DNA of 64,000 nucleotides from positions 26,530 to 90,529 of the forward strand of contig NZ_JAFYYT010000008.1 in the NCBI RefSeq assembly GCF_017549005.1, given 5' to 3'. The position numbers and the translations under genes are program-made. This stretch comes from Ruminococcus sp. GTDB lineage: Bacteria; Bacillota; Clostridia; Oscillospirales; Ruminococcaceae. Within the stretch, counting starts at the first letter, position 1; every line of letters starts with the position of its first letter. A model generated the notes under the pieces. The model made no database searches and had not been told where the DNA came from. It saw nothing but the letters and a program-made list of their open reading frames with translations. Positions 2,925 to 17,513 of this stretch are shown in pieces.

Positions 2925-5564
2925 ATGAAACACTATCTTGAATCAACCGAATCGGTCCTTAAAGAAGTCAAAAGTTCGGCTTCGGGACTTACCGCAGAAG
3001 AGGCTGCAAAGCGCCTTGAAAAGGTAGGTCAGAACAAGCTCGACGAGCCGCCGAAGCCCACGCTGCTTGCAAGGTTCATAGAGCAGTTCAAGAATCCCAT
3101 GATACTCGTTCTTATCGCAGCTGCCGTAATATCAGCTATTACAGGCATAGTTTCCGAGGGCAAGCTTGACGCGGACGTATTCATCATCATGTTCGTTGTC
3201 ATCGCAAACGCTGTTCTCGGAGTTTATCAGGAAAACAAAGCCGAATCCGCTATCGAAGCCCTGCAGGCTATGAGCGCCGCACAGAGCAAGGTTTACCGCT
3301 CGGGCGAGATGATAGTGATACCCAGTTCGGAGCTCGTCCCCGGTGACGTAATAGCTCTCGAGGCAGGCGACAATGTCCCTGCGGACTGCCGTATACTCGA
3401 AGCGGCTGCACTTAAAGCCGAAGAATCAGCCCTCACAGGCGAAAGCGTCCCCTCCGAAAAGGAGAGCGGAGTGCTCTCGGGCGAGGAAGTACCTCTCGGC
3501 GACAGAAAGAATATGCTCTACATGGGCAGCAGTATCGCTTACGGCCGTGCGGAAGCAGTCGTAGTCGCTACAGGTATGCAGACCGAAATGGGCAAGATAG
3601 CAGGTGCTATAGCAAATGCAGACGATGACGAGACTCCTCTCCAGAAGAGCCTCGACCAGCTCAGCAAGATACTTTCAGTGGCAGTTCTCGTTATCTGCGT
3701 TATCATACTTGGAATCAACATATTACAGATGCTCGTGAAGAACGGCGCTATCACGCTCCCCGGCTTCCTTGACTCGTTCATGATAGCTGTAAGCCTTGCT
3801 GTTGCGGCTATTCCGGAGGGACTTGCGGCAGTTGTCACAGTCGTTCTCTCTATCGGCGTTACCAATATGTCCAAGCGCGGAGCTATCATACGCAGACTTA
3901 CCGCCGTTGAGGCTCTCGGCTGCGCTCAGGTAATATGCTCCGATAAGACAGGTACTCTCACACAGAACAAGATGACAGTCGTTCACGAGAATACAGACGA
4001 CAAGGAGCTCCTTGCAAAGGCTATGGCGCTCTGCTGCGACGCTGTCCTCAACTCCGACGACACAGTTGCGGGCGAGCCTACAGAGGCTGCTCTCGTAGCT
4101 TACGCACACAAGTGCGGACTTAAAAAGTACGAGCTGGAGGCAGCAACTCCGAGAGTTGCAGAAGCTCCCTTTGATTCTCTCAGAAAGATGATGTCCACTG
4201 TACACAAGACCGATAAGGGCTATGTACAGTACACCAAGGGCGCTCCTGACGAGGTGCTGAAAAACTGCACCCATATGTACAAAGAGGGCGGCGTCCGCAT
4301 TATGACGGAGTCCGACAGACTTGAGATACTCCGCAGAAACAAGGAAATGGCAGACCAGGCTCTGAGAGTTCTCCTTGCGGCTTACCGTGAGTACGACGAG
4401 CTCCCCGCAGATACCTCACCCGAAGGTCTCGAGCATGATCTTATATACATAGGCATGACAGGTATGATAGACCCTGTCCGTCCCGAAGTCAAGGACGCTA
4501 TCGGTCTCTGCCGCACAGCAGGCATACGTCCTGTCATGATAACAGGCGACCACAGGGATACAGCCGTTGCTATCGCAAAGGAGCTGGGAATCCTCGGCGA
4601 GGGTCAGCAGGCTCTCACAGGCGCAGAGCTCTCAAAGATTCCCGATAACGAGTTCAACGCACACGTTGAGGACTACAGCGTATATGCCCGTGTACAGCCT
4701 GAGCACAAGGTACGTATAGTCAACGCATGGCGCAAGAAGAACATGACAACAGCTATGACAGGCGACGGCGTAAACGACGCTCCGTCCATCAAGAGCGCGG
4801 ATATCGGCGTTGGTATGGGTATCACAGGTACGGACGTTACAAAGAACGTTGCGGATATGGTCCTTACCGACGACAACTTCGCAACTATCGTAGGCGCTGT
4901 CGAGGAAGGCAGACGTATCTATGACAATATCCGCAAGGCTATACAGTTCCTGCTTTCCAGCAACCTCAGCGAAGTGCTGTGCATACTTATGGCTACTATC
5001 GGTCTCGGCAGTCTCACAAATGGCTCGTTCGTGATATTCAAGCCTGTACATCTGCTCTGGATAAACCTTATCTCAGACTGTTTCCCTGCAATAGCTCTCG
5101 GCATGGAGCCTGCTGAAAAAGGCATTATGTCACGCAAACCGCGAAGCAGTAATTCCCACATCTTCTCAGACGGTCTCGGCATAAATCTTCTGTGGCAGGG
5201 TACACTGATAGCAATACTCAGCCTTATCTCCTACGTTGTAGGCTATCAGAACGAGGGACACGGCGCAGCTATGACAATGGCTTTCATCACCCTCTGCGTA
5301 TGCGAAATGCTCCATGCATGGAACATGAGAAGCCTTAAAGGCTCTATCTTCAAAATGAAGAGCAGAAATATAGTCCTTATCGGAGCTATCGCCCTTTCAG
5401 CCGTGCTCACTATCCCCGTACTCTTTATACCGAAGCTCAGGGATATATTCTCACTTACTCAGCTTAACGGTTCCGATTATCTCTTTGCATTCCTCATAGG
5501 TGCCTGCATAGTGCCTGTTGTTGAGATAGTGAAGTTCTTCCAGAGAGCTTCTTCAAAGAAGTAA
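2925..5564 (+). CDS. Calcium-type P-type ATPase (P2A class)
   Basis: This 879-residue cation pump has all P-type landmarks: TGES in the actuator domain (about residue 171), PEGL in transmembrane helix 4, the phosphorylated Asp in DKTGTLT (about 340), KGAPDEV in the nucleotide domain, and TGDGVNDAP (about 612). The N-terminal cation-ATPase domain and NPMILVLIAAAVISA helix place it with bacterial SERCA/PMCA-like Ca2+ exporters, which use ATP to expel Ca2+. ATG 2925 is preferred over the upstream in-frame TTG because GGAGG (2915-2919) sits 5 bases before it. It is a single-gene unit ending in a composite repeat-terminator. Confidence 0.93.
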   Translation: MKHYLESTESVLKEVKSSASGLTAEEAAKRLEKVGQNKLDEPPKPTLLARFIEQFKNPMILVLIAAAVISAITGIVSEGKLDADVFIIMFVVIANAVLGVYQENKAESAIEALQAMSAAQSKVYRSGEMIVIPSSELVPGDVIALEAGDNVPADCRILEAAALKAEESALTGESVPSEKESGVLSGEEVPLGDRKNMLYMGSSIAYGRAEAVVVATGMQTEMGKIAGAIANADDDETPLQKSLDQLSKILSVAVLVICVIILGINILQMLVKNGAITLPGFLDSFMIAVSLAVAAIPEGLAAVVTVVLSIGVTNMSKRGAIIRRLTAVEALGCAQVICSDKTGTLTQNKMTVVHENTDDKELLAKAMALCCDAVLNSDDTVAGEPTEAALVAYAHKCGLKKYELEAATPRVAEAPFDSLRKMMSTVHKTDKGYVQYTKGAPDEVLKNCTHMYKEGGVRIMTESDRLEILRRNKEMADQALRVLLAAYREYDELPADTSPEGLEHDLIYIGMTGMIDPVRPEVKDAIGLCRTAGIRPVMITGDHRDTAVAIAKELGILGEGQQALTGAELSKIPDNEFNAHVEDYSVYARVQPEHKVRIVNAWRKKNMTTAMTGDGVNDAPSIKSADIGVGMGITGTDVTKNVADMVLTDDNFATIVGAVEEGRRIYDNIRKAIQFLLSSNLSEVLCILMATIGLGSLTNGSFVIFKPVHLLWINLISDCFPAIALGMEPAEKGIMSRKPRSSNSHIFSDGLGINLLWQGTLIAILSLISYVVGYQNEGHGAAMTMAFITLCVCEMLHAWNMRSLKGSIFKMKSRNIVLIGAIALSAVLTIPVLFIPKLRDIFSLTQLNGSDYLFAFLIGACIVPVVEIVKFFQRASSKK

Positions 5565-5566
5565 AC

Positions 5567-5618
5567 AGAACTAAGAGCTAAGAACTAAGATTTTAGGGGC
5601 GCACAATGTGCGCCCCTT
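5567..5618 (+). repeat. Composite extragenic repeat with terminator palindrome (copy 1)
   Basis: Starting two bases after the ATPase stop, a 24-bp tract built from AACTAAGA and GCTAAGA words is followed by a palindrome with 11-bp arms (AGGGGCGCACA / TGTGCGCCCCT) around one base, then TT. An almost identical unit lies at 48695-48750 after another plus-strand gene. It probably acts as a terminator. Confidence 0.75.
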
Positions 5619-5738
5619 ATAATATGAAAAAAGACCGATCATATGTGTAATACGCATAGAGAAGTATTTGTGAGAATTTATTGAGGAAAACCCTTTTGAA
5701 AAAGGGACGCCCGAAAGAAGAAATTATAGTTTTAGATG

Positions 5739-7407
<1,669 letters not shown>

Positions 7408-7507
7408 TCACAGCGAATCGCAACCTTATTATAACATATACTCCGCATCAATTCAAGACTTTAAAGCGAGAAATTTATTCGCGCGCTGTGATTCTCTTGT
7501 CGCTTAT

Positions 7508-7696
7508 TCAGGCGGAGTAATCGCCGTTCTTGATTTCACGGGCTATCATTCTGCTAATGATAGCCTTGATAGTTTCGCTATCATCACCGCAGAAATGCGT
7601 CTCGACAATATAGGTGGTGTTGCCTATCCTGTACTCTGAAATAGTGGGAGTAGGCAATGTCTGCGGATTTTCTGTTGTATTCTCGTTTCTTCCCAT
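7508..7696 (-). CDS. TnpW-like transposon protein
   Basis: A 62-residue protein starting at ATG 7696 behind a perfect AAGGAGG. The C-terminal half (YRIGNTTYIVETHF, then KAIISRMIAREI) matches the small TnpW family named from Tn4451, where it lies beside the TnpX serine recombinase. Its biochemical role is unknown. It is encoded upstream of the recombinase on the same strand, 121 bases apart, as expected for this type of element. Confidence 0.8.
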   Translation of the reverse strand: MGRNENTTENPQTLPTPTISEYRIGNTTYIVETHFCGDDSETIKAIISRMIAREIKNGDYSA

Positions 7697-7822
7697 GTGA
7701 ACCTCCTTGCTTTTGGCTGCTCTGACGAATGGAGCAGCGGGCGTATGTCGTGGAGAGTGGGAGGATTTCATTTTGGCGACAGCTTGCAACTTTGGCAAAA
7801 ACAGATGCAGGCGGAAATTATC

Positions 7823-8009
7823 CCCTCTTACTATCTGGAGAAAAGGAGCTCGTTTTTCAACCCTATCGCAGAAAATAGTCTGCAATTTTTGAGCGATTCT
7901 CTCTTTTGCACAATCAGCCAAGTCTGTTTGAATGCTGCGTTGTCAGAAATAGAGAATAGATGCAGATAGGGTTGAAAACAGGACAAATTATCTCCTGATA
8001 GTAGGAGGG
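7823..8009. repeat. Imperfect 45-bp inverted repeat
   Basis: Arms 7823-7867 and 7965-8009 are inverted copies with 35 of 45 matching bases by eye. The outer 19 bases (CCCTC, TACTATC, GGAGA blocks) and inner TTTTCAACCCTATC are best conserved. The spacer is 97 bp. Confidence 0.7.
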
Positions 8010-8011
8010 CA

Positions 8012-8043
8012 ACACAAAAGCCGCACCCGTGACAGGTGCGGCT
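8012..8043 (-). terminator. Minus-strand terminator downstream of the XRE gene
   Basis: Read on the minus strand, AGCCGCACC, a 7-base loop, and GGTGCGGCT are followed by TTTTGTG. It would stop transcripts from the XRE regulator before TnpW. Confidence 0.65.
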
Positions 8044-8187
8044 GAAAAATCCGAGACATGAAAATGAAGCAAAAAACGGTTCAAAAAAAGTGCCGTATAC
8101 CTTGTTGTGAGAAGCTACCAGCAAGCCATAGAAAGTGCCGTATTCTTTGCACTTTCGGAGATTTTCGGTCGCAAGTCTCCCGAAGAT

Positions 8188-8218
8188 TTGATTCAGGGAA
8201 CCCTCCGCCCTGAATCAA
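8188..8218. repeat. 11-bp perfect inverted repeat
   Basis: TTGATTCAGGG and CCCTGAATCAA flank a 9-base spacer. There is no T-run, so a protein-binding site or structural element is more likely than a terminator. Confidence 0.6.
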
Positions 8219-8347
8219 GTCTCCATCAAAACAAGGATGCACCTTGAACCGCTGAATAGGAAGTGTAGATGAAAAAACATCTCTCGCATAATTATTACAA
8301 ATTATGATGCACTGTGCCAAGAATAAAGGTACTCACATAATAAAACC

Positions 8348-9127
8348 TTATTGCTTTGAATCATCAATGGGATACAAATCAAATAATAACGATGAAATTG
8401 TTTCTTGCAACGCATAACGGCGATATTTAAGACTATCAATGAGCTTACCAGAAGTTGTATAGTCATCATATTCCAGTTCTCTATACTTGTGTATAACTTG
8501 TAATTCTTCATCTGTTAAAGAATCACGAATACTCAATTCTTCTGATGAAAAGGCATCGTCACAATCTAACGGTGAGTTAAGGTTGTCAATAATAAAATTT
8601 GCTTTTTTAGGCTCCATACTATAAAGTTGTTCTTTTAGAGAACGTACCTTTTCATCGTATTCATTTCTATGCTTTACATAATCAGAATAGAGATCATCTA
8701 CTTTTTTTAACTCTTCAACTGCTTCTATGAAACGTGGCATCGAAATAAACCTGTTAATCATTTTTTGATATGAATCAGCTTCTTCAGAAAAAACAAATTT
8801 TTCAGGAATAAGCCCCATAACAGTTTTTATTTGGTGAATAGATTCCTCAGTCAATCCTGTTTCAGCAACAACGATTGTTGTGTTTTTTGTTTTATTAGAA
8901 TACGCTTCTTCTCCAAGGAGATATCCGAGTTCACATCCGAAGAATTTGCACATATTCAAAAGTATTTCCAAAGGCGGAAGTGTCCTCTTATCCGAGTCGT
9001 CATTTTCATAGTTGGATATTTGCTTTCCGGTTACTCCAAGTTTATCACCTAACCTCGCCTGAGACCACTTGTGGTTTTGGCGCTCTTTTTTTATATTCTT
9101 ACTCAAGACTTCAGGGCTATAATACAT
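8348..9127 (-). CDS. XRE-family transcriptional regulator
   Basis: A 259-residue protein with an N-terminal helix-turn-helix of the Cro/C1 type: IKKERQNHKWSQARLGDKLG, then VTGKQISNYEN and PPLEILLNMCKFF (about residues 10-70). The rest is a long acidic, helical region without a recognised enzyme domain. It starts at ATG 9127 behind AAAGGAAA. It is divergent from the small membrane protein gene at 9260, and a strong promoter for that gene lies in the shared 132-bp intergenic region, so it probably regulates the island genes. Base composition is AT-rich compared with the flanking chromosome, consistent with transfer. Confidence 0.85.
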   Translation of the reverse strand: MYYSPEVLSKNIKKERQNHKWSQARLGDKLGVTGKQISNYENDDSDKRTLPPLEILLNMCKFFGCELGYLLGEEAYSNKTKNTTIVVAETGLTEESIHQIKTVMGLIPEKFVFSEEADSYQKMINRFISMPRFIEAVEELKKVDDLYSDYVKHRNEYDEKVRSLKEQLYSMEPKKANFIIDNLNSPLDCDDAFSSEELSIRDSLTDEELQVIHKYRELEYDDYTTSGKLIDSLKYRRYALQETISSLLFDLYPIDDSKQ

Positions 9128-9175
9128 ATAATTTCCTTTCTTACCTAAAAAGTAAATTTATATTTCGGAACATAC

Positions 9176-9204
9176 TTGACATTTCCTATTAGTCATTATA
9201 CAAT
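9176..9204 (+). promoter_or_regulatory. Promoter of the island gene train
   Basis: Perfect TTGACA at 9176-9181 and TACAAT at 9199-9204, 17-bp spacing, about 55 bases upstream of the first plus-strand island gene. Confidence 0.8.
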
Positions 9205-9259
9205 GTTATTACAGCAATGTCAACCCATTAGATTATGTTTTGAAAGGCGGTCGATTTGT

Positions 9260-9574
9260 ATGGCTTGGAATCCAAAGAAACCAGGGAATTATGCTTGGTT
9301 AACCCAAATAGTAAAAGAACACGGAGGTGTTGAACAATTCATCGATGATATCCACAATGAAGGATATCAAAAAGGACAGGAACATGGAGTACTTATAGGA
9401 GCAAGTATCGCAACGATAGCATTTGTGGCGGTTTTGGGAGCTTATCAAGAGATAAGGCACATCGTAGAAGTACGAAAAGCGTCTAAGGTGCGTGCAAAAG
9501 TATCAAGTGATATTATACGTTGCAATATAAGCAAATCTGACAGTGAAGGCGTTGATACACCAACTCAAAAATGA
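9260..9574 (+). CDS. Small single-span membrane protein, copy A
   Basis: A 104-residue protein starting at ATG 9260 behind AAAGGCGG. The soluble N-terminus contains AWLTQIVKEHGGVEQFIDDI and HNEGYQKGQEHG, followed by one hydrophobic helix (about residues 46-64, ASIATIAFVAVLGAY) and a basic, then acidic tail. It is clearly paralogous to the product of 14745-15083; both share the [20 protein letters not shown] and GAY motifs in the same order. I know no function for this family. It lies first in the plus-strand island train behind the strongest promoter of the island. The two copies bracket the enzyme genes, suggesting both are parts of one membrane-associated system. Confidence 0.75.
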   Translation: MAWNPKKPGNYAWLTQIVKEHGGVEQFIDDIHNEGYQKGQEHGVLIGASIATIAFVAVLGAYQEIRHIVEVRKASKVRAKVSSDIIRCNISKSDSEGVDTPTQK

Positions 9575-9600
9575 GTTATTAAATTGTTTAGTGCCTGCAA

Positions 9601-9725
9601 TGTTGCATATTTCTATAAAATGTTGCAGAAATATATGACTTCATACAAAGTGTTGCGCACTCGGTTCTTTTGTTGCAAAAAAACAACATCAAGCAAAAAT
9701 GTTGCAACTTATTGTTCCTTGTTGC
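9601..9725 (+). promoter_or_regulatory. Iteron-like array of six TGTTGC boxes
   Basis: TGTTGC occurs at 9601, 9621, 9651, 9671, 9700 and 9720, that is three pairs with 20-bp spacing inside each pair and 50 or 49 bp between pairs. Most copies read TGTTGCA. The fifth lies in a GTTGCAAC palindrome, and an inverted GCAAC (9753-9757) sits between the boxes of the downstream promoter. Spacing by whole helical turns suggests cooperative binding by a regulator, possibly the HTH domain of the next gene. Confidence 0.75.
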
Positions 9726-9741
9726 AATTATGTGATAAATA

Positions 9742-9770
9742 TTGACTTTTACGCAACGGCATGGTATTAT
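9742..9770 (+). promoter_or_regulatory. Promoter of the HTH-PIN-ankyrin operon
   Basis: TTGACT at 9742-9747 and TATTAT at 9765-9770 with 17-bp spacing, just after the TGTTGC array and about 48 bases before the start codon. Confidence 0.75.
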
Positions 9771-9817
9771 ATGATCAAAGAACACACACCTGCAGATGTA
9801 CGGAGGAGGAATCAGCT

Positions 9818-11140
9818 ATGACCAAAAAGGAAATGGAGTTTTTAGGCGGCAGAATGAAACAGCTACGTGAGAAGAACTCTGTAAAAAGTCTTGAAGCTAT
9901 GAGAGAACTACTGACTGATAGCGGAAATGATGATTATCGTGTTGATAATAAATCGACGCTTTCAAGAGCAGAGAGCGGTTCCGCAGGAGAAAAGACTATT
10001 ATTAAGTGGGCAAAAGCTTACTGTAGTGTTTTCGGATATTCTGAAAAACAGACTGAGCAATTCCTTAGAGGCGATAAAATAGCTGTTCCAGATACATCGG
10101 CTCTTCTTAAGAATCCTCAGTTAGTGGACGAACTCGGTGAGGAATACAATATCGTTGTAATCCCAGACACTGTAATAAGAGAACTGGACGGCATAAAAAA
10201 TGCTAATGCTGGTGCTCTTGGCAAAAAAGCATGGGAAATCATCAGAGGTATAGGTTACGGTGAAAGAGTAATCAAAATGGAGTATGATGGCGATAAATCC
10301 ATTGAAAAGGACGAGCAGATAATATCGGTTGCAAAAACTGCGGCTGAAAAGTATGGATGTGAGGTACAAATCATTACAGACGATGCCGACTATTCTGCTT
10401 TTCTAAAAGGTGATGAAACGGTTACAGCTCTACATTTAAGAGAGTACATGATTACTAAGCAAAAACTTGTCAATATGAAAGGACTTGTAGAGCTTGATAA
10501 TTATTATGCCGATGATTATTCCAATTTGACAGCTCCTGATGAAGATGAGATAAATGCATTTCTTGCTGACGGTAATACTCTTATTATTTCAGCGGTAAGA
10601 AATCGTTCGCACAGTTTAGCTCAAAGGAAAGCCAAAATCAAATGGTTAACAGATCATGGCGCAGATGTTAATAAGAGAGACTGTAAGCACAGATACTTTC
10701 CACCGCTGACTCATGCGATACAGATGAATGATTATGAAATGTTTATCTTCCTATTAAACGAATGCCATGCAGATCCAAATGTCGGCAGCAGAAATCCACA
10801 CGATGCGGGAAAACTCAGACAAAAGGACATTAAGCGTGAAAAAAACGAAGGTAATATGCCTTTAATGGTCGCTGCTTGGGATGGCAAGGTCGAATTTGTT
10901 AAAGCACTTTGTGCTGATGAACGTACAAGTATCAATCAGCAAGACGCCAATGGTTTTACCGCCTTGATAAAGGCTTGCTACTGGGGATTCCTGAAATGCA
11001 GAGATATTCTGCTTGATGCAGGAGCTGATACAAAAATCGTCGACATTGACGGTTTAACAGCAGAGGATCATTATAACGAGTTCCTTGAATGCGGACGAAA
11101 AAAGCCAACCAAGCAGAATAAGAAAGGACGTCGATTCTAA
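9818..11140 (+). CDS. HTH-PIN domain-ankyrin repeat protein
   Basis: A 440-residue protein, ATG 9818 behind GGAGGAGG. Residues 8-75 look like an XRE-type DNA-binding domain (GGRMKQLREKN, then KSTLSRAESG). Residues 88-215 form a PIN nuclease domain of the PhoH-associated kind: VPDTSALLKNP (D92), VVIPDTVIRELDGIK (E122) and IITDDADYSAFL (D188, D189, D191) supply the acidic metal-binding residues. Residues 250-430 hold ankyrin repeats (LTDHGADVNKRD, GFTALIKACYWG, LLDAGADTKIVD). PIN domains cut RNA. The DNA-binding end and the operator-like array upstream suggest autoregulation. The stop overlaps the next start. Target and trigger are unknown. Confidence 0.85.
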   Translation: MTKKEMEFLGGRMKQLREKNSVKSLEAMRELLTDSGNDDYRVDNKSTLSRAESGSAGEKTIIKWAKAYCSVFGYSEKQTEQFLRGDKIAVPDTSALLKNPQLVDELGEEYNIVVIPDTVIRELDGIKNANAGALGKKAWEIIRGIGYGERVIKMEYDGDKSIEKDEQIISVAKTAAEKYGCEVQIITDDADYSAFLKGDETVTALHLREYMITKQKLVNMKGLVELDNYYADDYSNLTAPDEDEINAFLADGNTLIISAVRNRSHSLAQRKAKIKWLTDHGADVNKRDCKHRYFPPLTHAIQMNDYEMFIFLLNECHADPNVGSRNPHDAGKLRQKDIKREKNEGNMPLMVAAWDGKVEFVKALCADERTSINQQDANGFTALIKACYWGFLKCRDILLDAGADTKIVDIDGLTAEDHYNEFLECGRKKPTKQNKKGRRF

Positions 11141-11979
11141 TGATTGACCGAGCCTGTATCAGCATCAACAATCGCTGTAACCTGAACTGCACTTACTGCC
11201 ACTTTCACACCTCTGAAAAGGCGGAATACCTTGCTGAAGCGGAAATGAATGTCTTTTCGATACTTGACAATATCAAGCACCACGTTGACAAGTATAATAT
11301 TGAGGTGTTCAAGCTCGGCTTTGTGGGCAACGGTGAGCCGCTCCTTGACTATGAAGCATTACACGAATACATTGAATACATCAGCGATTACCTCTCCGCT
11401 GGCAGGATTGCTGCCTATACAATAACAAATGGAACGCTCATAACCGATGAAATGCTCGATTTCTTCAAGGAACACAAGGTCAATGTGGGCTTTTCAATTG
11501 ACGGAATACCGGAGATACACAACAAGTTAAGGTGCAATACCCATTCTGAGGTCATGCACGCTATTGAGCTGTATCATTCGGTAAACGGCTGCTATCCTTC
11601 AATGAATTGTACCGTTGGCAGAGATGCGCTCAAAACGGCGGAAGATACGATATCTTTCTTTGAACCGTTCAACAGCAGGATAACCTTTTCCCGTATGATC
11701 GGTACAGACGGTATATCCTTAGACGAGTTCCGCTGTTTCCTCGATAAAGCCAAGCAAAAGCTCAATGTTCGTACCGGAGGATACGATTGCACGATGTACG
11801 GAGGTATGTGCGGTGCAGGGATCAACAACATCTTCTATGCAAATGGAAATGTATATCTATGCGGCAATTGCGTGGATTTACCGCCAATTGCTAAAGCTGA
11901 TACACCTATTGACCGTATAAAGCCCGATATTCCTGAATTTGACCGAAATACTTGTTTCAAGGAATCACAAGGTTTATAA
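11140..11979 (+). CDS. Radical SAM enzyme
   Basis: A 279-residue radical S-adenosylmethionine enzyme. C13-X3-C17-X2-C20 (RCNLNCTYC) binds the 4Fe-4S cluster; FVGNGEPLLDY is the GGE-like SAM motif, and TITNGTLI and VGFSIDGIPEIHNKLR are typical of the anSME/SPASM branch. Four further Cys near the C-terminus (YDCTMYGGMCGAG and YLCGNC) could bind a second cluster. Its ATG shares the last A of the PIN-ankyrin stop (TAATG), so the two are translationally coupled. SPASM relatives modify peptides, but there is no obvious precursor peptide here; the substrate could be a small protein or nucleotide of this island. Confidence 0.88.
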   Translation: MIDRACISINNRCNLNCTYCHFHTSEKAEYLAEAEMNVFSILDNIKHHVDKYNIEVFKLGFVGNGEPLLDYEALHEYIEYISDYLSAGRIAAYTITNGTLITDEMLDFFKEHKVNVGFSIDGIPEIHNKLRCNTHSEVMHAIELYHSVNGCYPSMNCTVGRDALKTAEDTISFFEPFNSRITFSRMIGTDGISLDEFRCFLDKAKQKLNVRTGGYDCTMYGGMCGAGINNIFYANGNVYLCGNCVDLPPIAKADTPIDRIKPDIPEFDRNTCFKESQGL

Positions 11980-12076
11980 ATCATGGAATCGGTTTTTATA
12001 ACCATTTCGTGATATAGATTATAATGTAAACAGAAGAAAAAACAACCGTTTTCAACATAAGAAGGAGGAATTTGAA

Positions 12077-13117
12077 ATGATGAATGAAAAGAGAGTAAAC
12101 GAGATCATTTCCCAGATAAACGCTTTTTCTAAAGAAACCTACACCAAGAGCGAGTTTTTGCCAGAGTTGCTGAAACTTCAAAAAGAGCTGATTGATCTGA
12201 CCTTCAACGCTGAACACGCTGAAAACGGTGATCTTCGGCTTTGGGACGTAGAAAGGCATCTTCGCAAGATGAATGATGAACGCGGTCATGTAGCCGATGA
12301 TGAACTTGCAAGGTTCATTAAGGGCAGTAAGGTTGTGTGCAACAACATCAGTGCTGAGTTTTCAGGCAATGCAGGAGAACAGAAAGTGTTCAGGGCGTTG
12401 GAGAATCTCGGTTGTCAGAATGGCGTTCTTCACAATGTGGAGCTTGAATTTGACGGTAGACGTACTGAAATCGATGCTATTGTATTCACCAACCGCGCTG
12501 TTTTCATTATTGAGATCAAGAACAGCAAGAAGAACATATTTATCGACGAATACGGCGAATTATACAGAATCGGCAACTCTATGCACCATGACTGTAATAT
12601 CGTTGACAAGATGGACGAGCGTGAAGCTCTGCTCCGTAAGGCACTTGAACGGGCAGGAATGGATTACCTGAAAATCTTTAAGATAGTGACTTTCACTAAT
12701 CCTCGTATTGATGTTGAGTGTAAGTATCACTACATAAAAGTATGCCCCAGCAACTATCTTCCTTCTTTCATTGAAAGATTCACAAGCAATCAGTGGTATT
12801 CCTATGAGGACATCTGCACAATGATGGAGGCTGTAACTGAGGTCAAATGTCCCGAAGAATATCAGATGTCGATTGATATGACTACTTTCAAGAGAGATTT
12901 TGCAATACTAATGGCAAAACTTGAGGCGGCGGAAGAAGCTGATATTGAGTCTGAAATCGTTCAGGAAGAAATCAACGAAACTGAGAAGATTGTTGATACT
13001 AAACCTGATAATAAGAATAAGATAGTCCGTAAATATGGAGGTATGGTTGCTGCCGCAGTTGGCATAACACTTGTAAATGTCGCTTTCATCGGTATCAGCA
13101 GATTTATAAGGAAGTGA
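12077..13117 (+). CDS. NERD-domain protein with C-terminal membrane anchor
   Basis: A 346-residue protein, ATG 12077 behind AAGGAGGAA. A helical N-terminus (1-90) precedes a NERD (nuclease-related) domain at about 95-215: NAGEQKVFRALENLG (E101), RRTEIDAIVFTNR (D133), and FIIEIKNSK (E146, K148), the acidic-Lys pattern of a PD-(D/E)XK-like fold. After an acidic linker one hydrophobic helix (about 322-342, VAAAVGITLVNVAFIGI) ends in basic residues, so the enzyme probably faces the cytoplasm at the membrane. It lies 97 bases after the radical SAM gene and 6 before the next. DNA or RNA cleavage is inferred from the domain only. Confidence 0.85.
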   Translation: MMNEKRVNEIISQINAFSKETYTKSEFLPELLKLQKELIDLTFNAEHAENGDLRLWDVERHLRKMNDERGHVADDELARFIKGSKVVCNNISAEFSGNAGEQKVFRALENLGCQNGVLHNVELEFDGRRTEIDAIVFTNRAVFIIEIKNSKKNIFIDEYGELYRIGNSMHHDCNIVDKMDEREALLRKALERAGMDYLKIFKIVTFTNPRIDVECKYHYIKVCPSNYLPSFIERFTSNQWYSYEDICTMMEAVTEVKCPEEYQMSIDMTTFKRDFAILMAKLEAAEEADIESEIVQEEINETEKIVDTKPDNKNKIVRKYGGMVAAAVGITLVNVAFIGISRFIRK

Positions 13118-13123
13118 TAGCTA

Positions 13124-14725
13124 ATGAAGTATGTACTGTACGGACTGCCGTGTGCAGGAAAAACTACTCTGTTAAGCAAGCTGACAACACCTTTTATTCA
13201 CGGAAGTATAGAATTAAACCGAATGGCATCGGGAAGGTTTTCAAATCTTCCCGATGATAAAAAGGCTGAACTCCGTGTGAAATATGCTGAATGGCTTTCA
13301 AAAAGAGAAGATAGCTTTATCTCGGACGGTCATTACTCTTTCCTTGATGATGTTGTCTTTACCGAAGCAGACGGCAGCCTTTATGATGTGTTCATGTATT
13401 TATACTGTGATCCTGAAAGCATAGCTCAAAGGATTCAGTTATCCCCGAAAAACGAACGCTTCTCCAAATTGTCAGTGGAGCGAATCCGCAAGTGGCAGAG
13501 CTACGAAATCGAATGTCTGCGTAAAGAGTGCCACAACAGGAATAAGGACTTCTATGTTATACATGATGCCACATCAGCAGACTTACAGGAGTTTATAAAT
13601 CAAATCGAGAATGGATTCAGTTCTTACACTTTGGCTGGAAGCATCGTGGATAGGATCACCTCCATTTATTCCGTTCCGTGCGAGCTGCATATTGTTGATG
13701 GAGACAAGACTATCATCGAGAAGGATTCATTTAGGGTATCTACTGACAACTATATCACCCATGTATTTGACGGTAATTTCTACACAGGGTATCAGTCCAT
13801 GAAGTTCGCACAAGAAACAGAATTTTTGAAATACAACATGGATATCCTCGCTACGTTAAGTCTGAATGATGTAATATACAGCAAGATAGCTGATAAAAAC
13901 TATATCATTCTTTCTTCAGGAGTAAAGAAATTATGGGACAGACTTTCTGAGCTTCACGGTTTAAGGAATGTTATAGCCAATACTCTCATATCAGCAGATA
14001 CTAAGTATTTCGTGGTCAAGCTGCTGCAAGGTAAAGGATATGGAGTTATAGCCTATGGTGACGGCAAAAACGATTACTATATGCTGAGGCAGGCAGATAA
14101 GGGCTATCTGTATATCGGCTCATACCTTAGTCGCTCACTAAGAGATGCTGATACGGCAGGAATAAGCCTGATCTACGATAAATCTCCATACATACTGGCT
14201 GATAAGAACAACAGTATTACAGATGATATTGCGATTTGCAAGTCTAATTCAGCTGTAAACGGAGCTCCTCTTGCTGATGCTCATATCAGGCTCGGAAGAA
14301 TGCTCGGTGAAGCGATTCGAGAGATAATTCCGCACATTGATAGTGCAGTCATCGTACTTGAACGAGGCGGTCGTTTCTTTGGTGACGGTGTATATACAGG
14401 CTTTGGCGGTACTTTCTACAGCTTCGATTCTAAAAGCGATGACTTTCCTGAGATACAACAAGGAGTTGCTGTTATTGTTGACAGCGTGATCAACACTGGA
14501 AAGTCTGTCCTTGATATGATAGACAAGCTAAAGCAAAGAAAAACTGAGATAGAGATCGTTATTGTATCCAATGTCATTCAGGAAGATGCTATCAATCTAT
14601 TACAGGGTTATAAGGTCTTTGCGATACGAACATCTGCTAATTCATTCGTTGGTAGCAGGCAATCAACGCAAAAGAACGGGAAAGGCCCAGATACGGCTGA
14701 CAGGCTGTTTAATTATATCGACTGA
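13124..14725 (+). CDS. P-loop kinase - HAD hydrolase - phosphoribosyltransferase fusion
   Basis: A 533-residue protein with three enzyme-like regions. Residues 1-165 form a P-loop kinase-like domain (Walker A G7-LPCAGKTT). Residues 185-345 form a HAD hydrolase: motif I VDGDKTI (D192, D194), motif II IILSSG (261-266), and motif IV YGDGKNDYYML (311-321), closest to phosphoserine-phosphatase types. Residues 375-533 look like a type I phosphoribosyltransferase with PRPP loop VIVDSVINTGKSV (about 450-462). Together these could make, trim or salvage a nucleotide-like molecule. I know no protein with this order. Related HAD and phosphoribosyltransferase genes occur in Ter-type stress operons. Start ATG 13124 is 6 bases after the NERD stop. 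Confidence 0.8.
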   Translation: MKYVLYGLPCAGKTTLLSKLTTPFIHGSIELNRMASGRFSNLPDDKKAELRVKYAEWLSKREDSFISDGHYSFLDDVVFTEADGSLYDVFMYLYCDPESIAQRIQLSPKNERFSKLSVERIRKWQSYEIECLRKECHNRNKDFYVIHDATSADLQEFINQIENGFSSYTLAGSIVDRITSIYSVPCELHIVDGDKTIIEKDSFRVSTDNYITHVFDGNFYTGYQSMKFAQETEFLKYNMDILATLSLNDVIYSKIADKNYIILSSGVKKLWDRLSELHGLRNVIANTLISADTKYFVVKLLQGKGYGVIAYGDGKNDYYMLRQADKGYLYIGSYLSRSLRDADTAGISLIYDKSPYILADKNNSITDDIAICKSNSAVNGAPLADAHIRLGRMLGEAIREIIPHIDSAVIVLERGGRFFGDGVYTGFGGTFYSFDSKSDDFPEIQQGVAVIVDSVINTGKSVLDMIDKLKQRKTEIEIVIVSNVIQEDAINLLQGYKVFAIRTSANSFVGSRQSTQKNGKGPDTADRLFNYID

Positions 14726-14744
14726 CTGAAAGGAGAAATGCTCT

Positions 14745-15083
14745 ATGGCGTGGGACGCAAATGAAAAAGGTAATCCGGCTTGGCTTACAAAACAGGCAAG
14801 TGAACACGGTGGAGTTGACAACTTCATTGATGATATTCACAACGAAGGCTATCAGGAAGGTCATGAACGTGGTATGATTGTTGGCGCTGGTGTAGCAACT
14901 GTGGTTATTACTGTTGTGATAGGTGCATATGAAGGCATCAAGTATCTCGTTCAGAAGCACAAAGTTAAGAAGCAGGTTGTTATAGAACGCTCAGATTCAG
15001 CTCAAAATGCTATCAGGCAGATGTGTGAAGATACCGATGATAAGCAGTATGACGATAATGATGTTTCAGACCTTGACGATTAA
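14745..15083 (+). CDS. Small single-span membrane protein, copy B
   Basis: A 112-residue paralogue of the product of 9260-9574. It starts at ATG 14745 behind AAAGGAG, 19 bases after the fusion gene. Shared motifs in order are [26 protein letters not shown], then a hydrophobic helix (about 45-65, [16 protein letters not shown]). The tail differs: basic, then strongly acidic ([15 protein letters not shown]). Two related copies bracketing the four enzyme genes suggest a conserved structural or targeting role at the membrane. No known function. Confidence 0.75.
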
Positions 15084-15100
15084 TAAAGGAGGCTGTTTAT

Positions 15101-15319
15101 ATGACTATTTACACAACGCAGGAGTACAAGGGCTATGGTAAGCAGAACTACTACTGGTACGAATATCGACTTGAAGGCGATGAAGTGTTCAAGTACAAAT
15201 GTCACAGACAAAAATTCTTTGACGGACATGAAAACACATGGGAAAGGGATGAAGATGTAGTTAATTCTTGGAAAACTGATGATCCGGATATGCCTGATTG
15301 GCTGCATCAGTATCTGTGA
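15101..15319 (+). CDS. Small hypothetical protein
   Basis: A 72-residue soluble protein rich in aromatic residues ([17 protein letters not shown]) and Trp. The start is preceded by AAAGGAGG at a good distance, and it lies 17 bases after copy B of the membrane protein, so it belongs to the same transcript. I recognise no family. No signal peptide or membrane helix. Confidence 0.7.
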
Positions 15320-15364
15320 GTTCCTTATAAGTAACTTGTAAATTATGGACATGGAGGTATGATT

Positions 15365-15631
15365 ATGAGACACGTTTTCAGAGCAACAAAGCTTGGTTGG
15401 GACGAGGAACAGGAAGGTATATGGTTTGATTCAGAATACTATACCAAAGAAGAAGCTGAAGAGCAATTCAAGCCATATCAAGGAATAACTCAAAAAGGCT
15501 ATCCATATACAGGGTACGAATATGATGGGCAGAAGTATCATGATTATTTCTATCTTGGCGAATATGAGGATGATAAAATGCCCAAAAATAATGAAGAGTA
15601 TATTGATAGTTTGTTTGGGAAAGGTAGATGA
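15365..15631 (+). CDS. Small hypothetical protein
   Basis: An 88-residue acidic protein (FRATKLGWDEEQEGIWF, then EEYIDSLFGKGR). ATG 15365 is chosen over ATG 15359 because GGAGG at 15353-15357 is 7 bases from it but only one base from the earlier ATG. It is the last gene of the island train, about 95 bases before a bidirectional terminator. Like its neighbour it is rich in Tyr, Trp and acidic residues; both could be partners or substrates of the enzymes upstream. No known family. Confidence 0.65.
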   Translation: MRHVFRATKLGWDEEQEGIWFDSEYYTKEEAEEQFKPYQGITQKGYPYTGYEYDGQKYHDYFYLGEYEDDKMPKNNEEYIDSLFGKGR

Positions 15632-15725
15632 AAATCAAAAAGGAAGATACAAAATGAGTAAATAAACGCTATTATGCAGAATTTGACTAAACTGCATTAC
15701 GGAACTTGTAAAAACAGTACAACGA

Positions 15726-15760
15726 AAAAGTCCCCCATTCAGCAGAATGTGGGACTTTTC
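15726..15760. terminator. Bidirectional terminator closing the island operon
   Basis: AAAAGTCCCCCATTC and GAATGTGGGACTTTT pair over 15 positions with one mismatch around loop AGCA. A- and T-runs on both sides allow termination in both directions. Confidence 0.75.
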
Positions 15761-15856
15761 TGATTCGCTGTAAATTGCCTTGGGTTCAAACTTCTGTGCT
15801 GCGTCCCAACTGAAAAAGGGTTCTTCCTCAAACTCCTTTCCTAAAACTTCCAGCTT

Positions 15857-15936
15857 AAATTTTTCTAAATAGGACGCCCAACGAAAACTAACGCCCTCTG
15901 TAACACTTACAGGGGGCGTCCTATTTAGAAAAATTT
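15857..15936. repeat. 23-bp perfect inverted repeat
   Basis: Arms 15857-15879 and 15914-15936 are exact reverse complements (inner part GGACGCCC / GGGCGTCC, outer part AAATTTTTCT / AGAAAAATTT) with a 34-base spacer. It could be a strong terminator, a MITE-like element, or part of an element end. Confidence 0.75.
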
Positions 15937-16080
15937 GGGTTAAAAGTCTTTGGAAGGGGGTTCGGGGGAGAACATTTCCTCAGAAAGGTTTCCCCCGATA
16001 AGTCCCATATATACTTCTTTACGAGTACCGCACATACGACCGGTCATTTTATATTATTCTGCTGCTGGAGCAGCTTTTAT

Positions 16081-17073
16081 TCAGTTCATCTTAAAATAAA
16101 CGTTTCTGTACCACTCTACAGTTTCAGCCAGACCCATATCTACAGAATACTCTGCCTTCCAGCCAAGGCGCTCAAGCGCCTTTGTTGCGTCAAGCTGCTG
16201 GATAAGAATCTCGGATACCTCGCTCTGCTGTACAACAGAAGGTACATTCTCGCAGCCCATAATAGATTTGATCTTGTTTACAACTGTTTCTATATCCGTA
16301 GCAATGCCTGTACCGAAATTGAATGCATTACCAACTACATCTTCCTTGTTGATATTATACAGCATATACATATAGGCATTGACGATATCGTTGATATAAA
16401 GGAAGTCTCTCTTGAACACGCCGTTTGCAGGGTGTCTTATCAGCGGAGACTCGCCGTTTTCGAGCTTCTGTATCGTTCCCGGGATAAGTCTGTTGAAGTT
16501 ATTGTCACCGGGTCCGTAGATATTTCCGAATCTTCCTACTACAACAGGAAGTCCGTAGCTGTGATAGAAGCTTCTTGCCAGCATATCCTGACAAACCTTT
16601 GAAACGTCATAAGGATTGCTGCCCTGGAGTATCATGCTCTCATTGTAAGGCAGTACGTCGCTGTCGCCGTAGACCTTATCACTGGAAGCAACAAGGACAG
16701 CCTTGACTGTATCTGTGTGAAGTCTTGCAGCGTCTAAAATGTTGTATGTTCCCACAATATTGACCTGGAAAGTCACCTTAGGCATTTTATAAGCCAGATC
16801 CTGGAGAGCAACTGCTGCAAGGTGGAATATGACCTCTATCTTCTGCTCAACGATTATCTGCTCAATGAGAGTACCGTTGCTGACGTCGCCATAGTATACA
16901 TTTACCTTTTTATCAAGTCCGCAGATACTGAAATAACTGGTATTGTCGCATCTCTCGATGAGAACTGTGACATTTGCGCCAAGCTCAATGAGATGCTTTG
17001 TAATGTGCGCCCCTACAAATCCTGTTGCACCTGTTACGAATACACGCTTATTCTTCATATCCATTTTTTCCAT
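16081..17073 (-). CDS. NAD-dependent sugar-nucleotide dehydratase/epimerase (CDP-glucose 4,6-dehydratase-like)
   Basis: A 330-residue short-chain dehydrogenase of the extended type. It has the Rossmann motif TGATGFVGAH at the N-terminus, HLAAVALQDL, the catalytic Ser in VASSDKVYGD, and the YxxxK pair in YDVSK. The stretch GRFGNIYGPGDNNFNRLIPG is typical of CDP-glucose 4,6-dehydratase (RfbG) rather than UDP-galactose epimerase. These enzymes convert nucleotide sugars for cell-surface or natural-product glycans. It starts at ATG 17073 behind GGTAAGGGA and has its own promoter. No sugar cytidylyltransferase is next to it; a divergent glycosyltransferase lies 436 bases away. The exact substrate is uncertain. 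Confidence 0.82.
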   Translation of the reverse strand: MEKMDMKNKRVFVTGATGFVGAHITKHLIELGANVTVLIERCDNTSYFSICGLDKKVNVYYGDVSNGTLIEQIIVEQKIEVIFHLAAVALQDLAYKMPKVTFQVNIVGTYNILDAARLHTDTVKAVLVASSDKVYGDSDVLPYNESMILQGSNPYDVSKVCQDMLARSFYHSYGLPVVVGRFGNIYGPGDNNFNRLIPGTIQKLENGESPLIRHPANGVFKRDFLYINDIVNAYMYMLYNINKEDVVGNAFNFGTGIATDIETVVNKIKSIMGCENVPSVVQQSEVSEILIQQLDATKALERLGWKAEYSVDMGLAETVEWYRNVYFKMN

Positions 17074-17184
17074 TTTTCCCTTACCTTTCCTTTTTCACCT
17101 GTTGTATACGGTGATCTCCCCTGATGCGTCGGAATTGTCTGTTTCTTAGTATTCGATATAACAGGCTATATTAAAGCAAAAAAT

Positions 17185-17213
17185 AGTATAGCATATCCAC
17201 GGTGGTTTGTCAA
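17185..17213 (-). promoter_or_regulatory. Promoter of the dehydratase gene
   Basis: On the minus strand TTGACA (17213-17208), 17-bp spacer, TATACT (17190-17185), leaving a leader of about 110 bases. Confidence 0.75.
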
Positions 17214-17293
17214 GTATTAATTTATTTAAGTTCATAGCATAAGATGTCAAACTATATAGATAAAATGCCACCGGAGCTCATAAGAAAAAGGTA

Positions 17294-17322
17294 TTGATTT
17301 TTCTGTCGGAATATGATATAAT
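17294..17322 (+). promoter_or_regulatory. Promoter of the glycosyltransferase gene
   Basis: TTGATT at 17294-17299 and a perfect TATAAT at 17317-17322, 17-bp spacing, giving a leader of about 180 bases that contains a possible 36-codon upstream gene. Confidence 0.75.
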
Positions 17323-17402
17323 ATGAACTTGAACGGTTTTGAAGTGCCCATTACAGAAGAATACCTACAGCAAAGTCCCACTACTGCAACTCGGATAAAA
17401 AA

Positions 17403-17513
17403 ATGATAAATATTTGGCAAAAAACCACGCAGGACACAGTAAAAACCTGTTTCGGCAGCGCCAAAGCTGACGAAAAACAACTGAGTACAGTATTCTGGGA
17501 GGAATCAAAATGA
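17403..17513 (+). CDS. Possible 36-residue leader peptide overlapping the glycosyltransferase start
   Basis: An ATG at 17403 opens a 36-codon frame (starting MINIWQKTTQ, ending FWEESK) whose TGA overlaps the ATG of the glycosyltransferase by four bases. The ribosome site is weak (CGGAT then an A-run), so translation is uncertain. The ATGA overlap is what would be expected of translational coupling, but chance is possible at this length. Confidence 0.3.
   Translation: MINIWQKTTQDTVKTCFGSAKADEKQLSTVFWEESK

What the first reader, a model, noticed from the sequence alone, without database searches (positions are those of the whole stretch)
9176..15760. Uncharacterised island system: HTH-PIN-ankyrin, radical SAM, NERD and kinase-HAD-PRTase between paired small membrane proteins
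Seen: seven or eight same-strand genes with tight spacing, one ATG overlap, one terminator at the end, lower GC than the flanks, a divergent XRE regulator and a serine recombinase with TnpW at one side. The combination of an RNase-type PIN domain, a nuclease-like NERD domain at the membrane, a radical SAM enzyme and a three-part nucleotide enzyme is not one I know. Known separately: PIN and NERD domains are frequent in conflict systems, and HAD plus PRTase occurs in Ter-like stress operons. Inference: a mobile defence or stress system that makes a modified nucleotide as signal or effector and controls a nuclease.
Basis: partly seen in the sequence, partly recalled or inferred. Interest (0 to 1): 0.88.

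Follow-up and report, generated by a model that had tools for sequence, protein, structure and literature searches.

The report
Mobile PIN-ankyrin and radical-SAM operon
A mobile bacterial gene set, found mostly in gut and rumen bacteria and in a few of their viruses, joins a protein that probably represses its own operon and cuts RNA to a set of nucleotide-type enzymes; it may be an undescribed defence against viruses, but nobody has tested it.

Summary
An insertion of about 10.5 kb (empty site in a congener) carries a serine recombinase, TnpW, an XRE gene and an operon: HTH-PIN-ankyrin, radical SAM, NERD, fused kinase-HAD-PRTase, small proteins. The core is conserved: 26 of 29 loci hold all four parts, and separate searches with three of them pick the same 3 of 200 genomes and the same 4 viral contigs (PIN-ankyrin one contig end more).

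New: HTH-PIN-ankyrin has iterated operators. Type A proteins go with spaced GTTGC repeats, type B with spaced GTGCA repeats; types match in 18 of 18 loci with a strict operator (15 of 33 have none; 0 of 79 control loci). A matching copy precedes NERD in 6 of 11. The enzymes co-evolve (r=0.90), while HTH-PIN-ankyrin has been exchanged together with its operator.

Best reading: a self-repressed conflict system, probably anti-phage, in which the ankyrin part gates a PIN RNase and the enzymes make or remove a nucleotide-like ligand. Defence rests on location in prophages; ligand, repression and RNase activity are inference. No structure could be predicted. No known system tested fits.

The parts
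5565..16045 (.). inserted island (approximate ends)
   Evidence: In G457 (L083) the matches that end at window 5543 and start at 16046 lie about 120 bp apart; exact junction not resolved
5752..7407 (-). large serine recombinase
   Evidence: Pfam Resolvase, Recombinase, Zn_ribbon_recom, DUF4368
7508..7921 (-). TnpW-like protein
   Evidence: PF14202 6.8e-6
8348..9127 (-). divergent XRE regulator
   Evidence: HTH_3 2.9e-10
9176..9223 (.). overlapping divergent sigma70-like promoters (XRE leftwards, small membrane protein rightwards)
   Evidence: 12 of 12 and 11 of 12 consensus matches
9260..9574 (+). small one-TM protein, paralogue of 14745-15083, own promoter
   Evidence: TM segment by eye
9602..9757 (+). 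type A operator: GTTGC at 9602, 9622, 9652, 9672, 9701, 9721 and inverted GCAAC at 9753 inside the promoter spacer
9742..9770 (+). operon promoter TTGACT-17-TATTAT
9818..11140 (+). HTH-PIN-ankyrin protein (type A): proposed autorepressor and RNase
11140..11979 (+). radical SAM enzyme with conserved C-terminal cysteines
12080..13117 (+). NERD nuclease-like protein with C-terminal TM segment (accessory)
   Evidence: TM by eye
13124..14725 (+). P-loop kinase + HAD phosphatase + PRTase fusion
14745..15083 (+). small one-TM protein
   Evidence: TM by eye
15101..15319 (+). 72-aa accessory protein
   Evidence: relatives beside the system in L021, L023, L024, L040, L046-L048
15359..15631 (+). 90-aa accessory protein
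   Evidence: relatives in L022, L040
15725..15760 (+). hairpin, likely terminator
   Evidence: sequence by eye; not in the scan

Best explanation
A mobile, self-regulated conflict system, most likely anti-phage. The HTH-PIN-ankyrin protein binds an iterated operator and represses its own operon and, in several loci, a second promoter in front of the NERD gene. Its ankyrin domain is the sensor that controls the PIN RNase. The radical SAM enzyme with kinase-HAD-PRTase builds, charges and removes a nucleotide-like small molecule (PRTase adds ribose phosphate, kinase and HAD add and remove phosphate, radical SAM does the unusual chemistry). On infection the ligand level changes, the ankyrin part lets go of the DNA and frees the RNase, and the NERD protein at the membrane acts as a second nuclease. 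Supported by sequence: conserved unit, mobility, cognate operators, exchange of HTH-PIN-ankyrin with its operator, conserved PIN and radical SAM residues. Inferred: DNA binding and repression, RNase activity, ligand, trigger, and defence itself.
For: Unit: 26 of 29 loci hold all four core parts (the loci were found by kinase-HAD or radical SAM, so the other parts are the test); the rest are one contig end (L023) and two decayed copies (L037, L043). Kinase-HAD, radical SAM and PIN-ankyrin profiles each pick the same 3 of 200 genomes. Viral scans with radical SAM and kinase-HAD give the same 4 contigs, PIN-ankyrin scans those 4 plus one contig end. Co-evolution over 21 loci: radical SAM vs kinase-HAD r=0.90, PIN-ankyrin vs either 0.19-0.21. 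Operators: GTTGC (type A) or GTGCA (type B) with set spacings; type matches the protein in 18 of 18 loci with a strict-grammar operator (11 A, 7 B), 0 of 79 control loci, 1.0 Mb; L190, fetched afterwards, fits; matching arrays in front of NERD in 6 of 11. PIN acids D92, E122, D165, D189 kept in 28, 30, 27 and 31 of 31. Defence: 2 of 4 viral contigs carry it between lysis genes and serine recombinases; behind related endolysins 8 of 10 cargo proteins that I chose match PADLOC at 1e-5 or better, against 2 of 10 upstream phage proteins, both weak.
Against: No experiment and no structure: the prediction machine was busy at all 21 tries. In PADLOC only single proteins match: pVip on the radical SAM domain and PDC-M72A on the ankyrin part among the stronger ones. 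Of 7 chromosomal flank proteins that I chose, 6 are ordinary genes and 1 a phage integrase; none is a defence gene by Pfam. 15 of 33 system loci have no strict operator, all type C ones among them. The type match ignores relatedness; L021, L022, L024 and L074 may stem from one exchange. Cargo proteins came from 4 of the 18 endolysin loci looked at and include generic domains. Nothing shows that the enzymes act on a nucleotide; the nearest radical SAM relatives act on peptides or proteins. Mixed: L043 and L074 keep an intact PIN-ankyrin frame with broken enzymes, L037 and L075 the reverse.
Confidence: 0.45

Rival explanations
1. Peptide or protein modification: the radical SAM enzyme modifies the PIN-ankyrin protein or another protein, and kinase/HAD/PRTase add and remove a further group.
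For: Best family and PDB matches are peptide- or protein-modifying enzymes (sulfatase maturase models, 1.2e-21 but far under their cut-offs; anSME 8.9e-15).
Against: The small membrane proteins, the only small candidates in the window, have relatives in 7 of the 28 other loci only, so no universal small substrate was seen.
Confidence: 0.2
2. Viperin-like arm: the radical SAM module makes a nucleotide analogue that itself blocks phage polymerases; the PIN-ankyrin protein is mainly the regulator.
For: Radical SAM domain matches pVip models (1.4e-15); the neighbour is a P-loop kinase with nucleotide-kinase-type matches.
Against: NCBIfam viperin model 59 bits against a cut-off of 180, and peptide maturases score higher; PIN acids are conserved, so the RNase is probably active.
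Confidence: 0.15
3. Toxin-antitoxin-like or stress module: HTH-PIN-ankyrin is a self-repressed RNase toxin held back or released by the enzymes in response to metabolism, for the benefit of the element rather than against phage.
For: Operator array over the promoter; PIN domain; mobile element.
Against: Intact PIN-ankyrin frames persist with broken enzymes in L043 and L074; related prophages hold defence-type genes behind the endolysin.
Confidence: 0.15
4. RNA end-healing: kinase-HAD is a 5'-kinase/3'-phosphatase that works with the PIN nuclease.
For: Kinase-then-HAD order (resemblance to T4 Pnkp is recalled).
Against: No PNK phosphatase model among the listed matches; the HAD part is nearest to phosphoserine-phosphatase-like and P-type ATPase HAD models; no ligase among the window's nine proteins; PRTase and radical SAM unexplained.
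Confidence: 0.05

Closest known systems
Prokaryotic viperins (pVip) with nucleotide kinases
   Same: radical SAM enzyme next to a P-loop kinase; possibly anti-phage
   Different: viperin cut-off not met; conserved C-terminal cysteines C217, C224, C241, C272; HAD, PRTase and PIN-ankyrin partners
RNase L / 2-5A (animals)
   Same: ankyrin domain joined to an RNase-type domain; RNase L is among the matches of the ankyrin part
   Different: PIN instead of the RNase L nuclease; added HTH; no 2-5A synthetase seen; DARPins match better, so this is likely the similarity of ankyrin repeats in general
Ter-linked HAD/PRTase operons (recalled)
   Same: HAD and PRTase encoded together
   Different: no Ter family among the matches of the nine proteins; has kinase, radical SAM and PIN-ankyrin
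VapBC and other PIN toxin-antitoxin pairs (recalled)
   Same: PIN domain under a likely operator-bound repressor
   Different: HTH and PIN are one protein with an ankyrin domain; no separate antitoxin gene seen
Retron PRTase systems
   Same: PRTase domain, weak match PRTase_III-A 4.4e-4
   Different: no reverse transcriptase among the nine proteins

Membership tests
Prokaryotic viperin | score above the curated viperin cut-off | tested here: not met
   NF038283 59.2 bits, cut-off 180
Prokaryotic viperin | makes ddh-nucleotides | not testable with these tools
   enzyme assay needed
Ter-linked biosynthetic operon | TerD-type protein beside HAD and PRTase | tested here: not met
   no Ter family among the Pfam matches of the nine proteins
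Type II PIN toxin-antitoxin pair | separate antitoxin gene beside the PIN gene | tested here: not met
   HTH and PIN are in one chain; the next gene is the radical SAM enzyme
Type II PIN toxin-antitoxin pair | operator over the promoter | tested here: met
   cognate repeat arrays over the promoter, sequence evidence only
Retron with PRTase effector | reverse transcriptase in the operon | tested here: not met
   none among the nine window proteins
RNase L | RNase L nuclease domain and 2-5A synthetase | tested here: not met
   PIN_4 instead; no such synthetase among the nine proteins
Polynucleotide kinase-phosphatase | PNK-type phosphatase domain | tested here: not met
   HAD, Hydrolase and Hydrolase_3 models only
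Known or candidate systems of PADLOC-DB 2.0 | several genes of one system match | tested here: not met
   matches to unrelated systems, one protein each
Anti-phage defence system | protects against phage | not testable with these tools
   location evidence only

The most novel reading that the evidence does not exclude
A bacterial analogue of the OAS/RNase L logic with a new kind of messenger: radical SAM, PRTase, kinase and HAD enzymes make and destroy a modified nucleotide, and one protein that is transcription repressor, ankyrin receptor and RNase at once reads it, releasing both the operon and a membrane nuclease. Receptor and operator are swapped as a cassette between enzyme modules.
Probability: 0.27. 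Interest if true: 0.92.

Novelty: categorically new. Interest (0 to 1): 0.78.

Why it matters
If true, it adds a conflict system whose effector is also its own operon's repressor, with two matching protein-operator specificities that can be tested at once by binding assays. It would add a radical SAM route to nucleotide-type signals and give a prokaryotic parallel to ankyrin-gated RNases. Even without the signal idea, the exchange of an HTH-PIN-ankyrin protein together with its operator between enzyme modules is a clear case of modular swapping. 'Categorically new' means here that no known system tested shares the gene set; each single domain is of a known family, the broad class (defence) would be known, and absence from print is only as good as the open-access searches named.

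Tried and rejected
Truncated radical SAM gene: rejected, relatives have about the same length and end. Chance cluster: rejected. Known RNA in the region: no Rfam match in 5000-17500. Wide occurrence: the kinase-HAD profile matched only the own genome among 398 of the phylum; P0005 had true matches in 3 of 391 genomes of the class including the own, the other 12 of the 15 tally rows being partial matches to the HAD part; none in 72,556 plasmid or 50,697 phage records. The genome-contig scan used strict peptide patterns, so 24 loci is a lower bound. A viral scan with a divergent radical SAM alignment gave only 2 of the same 4 contigs. Operator as a free-standing signature: an exact pattern scan of viral contigs gave 10 contigs, 2 with the system (the L045 contig, and L094, whose PIN-ankyrin is 100% identical to that of L045) and 8 without any match to the system proteins, so the pattern alone is not specific there. 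A looser hexamer count in 300 bp upstream gave at least 2 TGTTGC in 8 of 15 type A genes and at least 3 TGTGCA in 5 of 11 type B genes, p=0.007 each. UPRTase-like end of the PRTase (GPDTxxRLFN): suggestive only; PDB profile matches were weak and led by purine-type enzymes. NERD protein: no PDB sequence match. Literature: 9 searches; I saw passages of PMC13092281 only and listings with abstract starts of the rest; the library is open-access only, so absence is weak.
Full report
What is there. The window holds an operon on the + strand: HTH-PIN-ankyrin (9818-11140), radical SAM (11140-11979), NERD (12080-13117), a fused P-loop kinase-HAD-PRTase (13124-14725), a small one-TM protein (14745-15083) and two small ORFs (15101-15319, 15359-15631) (domains). 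A paralogous small one-TM protein (9260-9574) lies upstream with its own promoter, divergent from an XRE gene (8348-9127). A serine recombinase and a TnpW-like protein follow on the other strand. In G457, a genome of the same genus, the two genes that flank the island (an ATPase-like gene, named by eye, and an epimerase gene) are neighbours with about 120 bp between the match ends, so about 10.5 kb (5565-16045) is an insertion; the exact junction is not resolved. The second genome fetched for this, G452, matched the right flank only.

It is a conserved unit. P0005 found two relatives in a class sample of 391 genomes (both re-appear below as L032 and L036). A kinase-HAD scan of the genome collection gave 24 loci, a radical SAM scan of viral contigs gave 4. 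With the window that is 29 loci: 26 hold HTH-PIN-ankyrin, radical SAM, kinase-HAD and PRTase; L023 is cut by its contig end, L037 has lost the radical SAM gene and the end of the ankyrin part, and L043 has a truncated kinase-HAD and no PRTase. The radical SAM gene of L029 has lost part of its cluster motif. The PRTase is fused in the window and L021-L030 and separate in 17 others; NERD is present in 11 of 29, the small membrane proteins in 8 of 29. In L021 the order is changed but the genes stay together. Reciprocal tests: in 200 genomes of the family of G202, profiles of kinase-HAD (E<=1e-20), radical SAM (1e-40) and PIN-ankyrin (1e-30) each hit G202, G1042 and G1075 only, at adjacent positions. 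In 100 genomes of the window's genus, radical SAM matches above 150 bits are in G000, G465, G461 and G466, the next being below 60 bits; PIN-ankyrin (1e-30) is in G000, G461 and G465, and G466 has a deletion that removes most of it. In viral contigs kinase-HAD finds the same 4 contigs as radical SAM, and two PIN-ankyrin scans find those 4 plus L094, which ends inside the gene. These loci are not all independent: L019 (G232) is L032, L020 (G202) is L036, L073 (G465) is L022, L189 (G1042) is L039; L033/L034 and L035/L046 are close to each other. A divergent set in G543 (L076, 29-34% identity) keeps the order PIN-ankyrin, radical SAM, kinase-HAD up to its contig end.

The enzymes evolve together, the PIN-ankyrin does not. 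Over 21 of the 29 loci (left out: L023, L033, L035, L037, L039, L042, L043, L046, being incomplete, decayed, near-duplicate, with two PIN-ankyrin genes or, L039, with only a PIN-dead copy) the distance correlation of radical SAM and kinase-HAD is 0.90, and of PIN-ankyrin with either 0.19 and 0.21 (permutation p 0.013 and 0.011, so weak but not nil). L021, L022 and L024 have window-like enzymes (68-77% identity) with a PIN-ankyrin of another type (30-34%). I name the types A (window-like), B (L040-like) and C (rest). Between A and B the mean identity is 19% in the HTH, 32% in the PIN and 39% in the ankyrin part; the last may in part reflect ankyrin repeats in general.

Operators. Upstream of the window gene GTTGC stands at 9602, 9622, 9652, 9672, 9701 and 9721, and inverted at 9753 inside the spacer of the promoter TTGACT-17-TATTAT; 20-bp-spaced pairs occur three times in the window, all here, against a mean of 0.10 in 100 shuffles. 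The spacing 20/30/20/30/20/33 (inverted), with sites missing or shifted by 1-2 bp and in L031 the last one not inverted, is seen in L025, L028, L029, L030, L031, L042 and L045; type B loci have GTGCA, at best 20/13/20/13/21 in L041, with 25 to an inverted site in L040, L043, L044 and L048. A strict two-type grammar scan of 33 system loci (the 29, L074, L075, L076, L190) finds operators in 18: type A in window, L025, L028-L031, L036, L042, L045, L047 and L190, type B in L021, L022, L024, L040, L041, L048 and L074; the type matches the PIN-ankyrin type in 18 of 18 (1 in 31,824 by the exact test, worked out by hand, which ignores relatedness). None in 79 control viral loci of 1.0 Mb. Types were set before the operators were seen, except L074 and L190, which were typed by protein similarity. 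The grammar was made from most of these loci; L190 was fetched afterwards and fits. 15 of 33 have none: L023 and L075, which lack the PIN-ankyrin gene or nearly all of it, all type C loci, and L026, L027, L037, L038, L039, L043, L044, L046 (some of these have looser sites). L021, L022, L024 and L074 combine window-clade enzymes (L074: radical SAM 86% identical, enzymes otherwise lost) with type B protein and type B operator, so protein and operator moved together; this may be one event. In 6 of 11 NERD genes looked at, a matching array lies in front of NERD (A: L036, L045, L047, L190; B: L021, L040); the other 5 (window, L022, L024, L046, L048) have none within 300 bp, L048 having one further up, and no array of the other type was seen, only scattered single sites (L023 was not looked at). 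The simplest reading is that HTH-PIN-ankyrin binds these sites and represses its own operon, and NERD with it; binding is not shown.

Active sites. The PIN acids D92, E122, D165 and D189 are kept in 28, 30, 27 and 31 of 31 sequences (the truncated L037 left out of 32); L035a, L046a and L039 have H and K in place of D92 and D165, and L035 and L046 carry an intact second copy beside it. The radical SAM family keeps CxxxCxxC (except L029) and C217, C224, C241, C244 and C272 in the 24 aligned sequences; L076 lacks C244. By recalled knowledge this resembles a SPASM/twitch cluster domain. Kinase and HAD motifs are conserved.

Where it travels. A gene of the serine-recombinase cluster is in the fetched stretch of 8 of 29 loci. 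In L045 and L046 the system lies between tail/lysis genes and serine recombinases. For relatives of the L046 endolysin (162 relatives, 80 kept, 18 looked at) I read the genes behind the endolysin. L101, L102 and L103 have other cargo and then serine recombinases: a PDC-S60-like protein (L101, L102) and a set with AAA-M41, WYL, Mrr, DEDDh and KAP proteins (L103). L106 (DEDDh, metallo-hydrolase) and L107 (M78, Sel1, Hsp70) show other cargo, but no recombinase within the stretch held. Several of the other 13 have little or no cargo or what looks by eye like ordinary phage genes; these were not scanned. Of 10 cargo proteins that I chose from L101, L103, L106 and L107, 8 match PADLOC at 1e-5 or better (best 1e-40); of 10 upstream phage proteins 2 do, at 4e-6 and 9e-6. 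This favours defence; it does not prove it. Of 7 chosen chromosomal flank proteins, 6 are ordinary genes and 1 is a phage integrase.

Mechanism. Supported by sequence: unit, mobility, cognate operators, exchange. Inferred: the HTH-PIN-ankyrin protein is repressor, sensor and RNase; the enzymes make and remove a nucleotide-like ligand; NERD is a second nuclease. The peptide-modification rival is kept because the nearest radical SAM relatives act on peptides or proteins. Decayed copies go both ways: L043 and L074 keep PIN-ankyrin without a working enzyme set, L037 and L075 keep kinase-HAD-PRTase without PIN-ankyrin, which speaks weakly against a toxin that needs constant neutralising by the enzymes.

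Known systems. The viperin cut-off is not met; no Ter protein, reverse transcriptase or PNK phosphatase was found among the window's nine proteins; the literature searches gave no paper with this combination (open-access library only). PMC13092281, of which I saw passages, reports a PIN nuclease and a HAD phosphatase in other defence systems. No structure was obtained.

Noticed in passing
window 15811-16036: A ~226-bp element, mostly an inverted repeat (70-nt arms), repeated across the genus sample, with two further copies in the own genome at 99% and 91%; MITE-like.
   Followed up: partly
L035 412-2915, L046 5480-7983, L039 5618-6832: PIN-ankyrin paralogues in which PIN acids D92 and D165 are H and K; in L035 and L046 an intact paralogue without HTH follows.
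   Followed up: partly
L034 4413-5582; L033 302-1471: An HTH gene and an RNase_T exonuclease gene directly before the system (Pfam on the L034 copies; L033 by cluster).
   Followed up: no
L045 12323-12544, L046 12259-12489: Small HNH nuclease-like genes beside the system in two viral contigs.
   Followed up: no
L107 10692-18944: Cargo behind a related endolysin with M78 peptidase-like, Sel1/DUF1883 and Hsp70-like proteins; no PADLOC match at 1e-5 for the last two: a possible undescribed system.
   Followed up: no
L042 9631 and 9773-10726: A second type A operator after the PRTase in front of a 317-aa gene without Pfam match: possible further regulon member.
   Followed up: partly
   Followed up: partly
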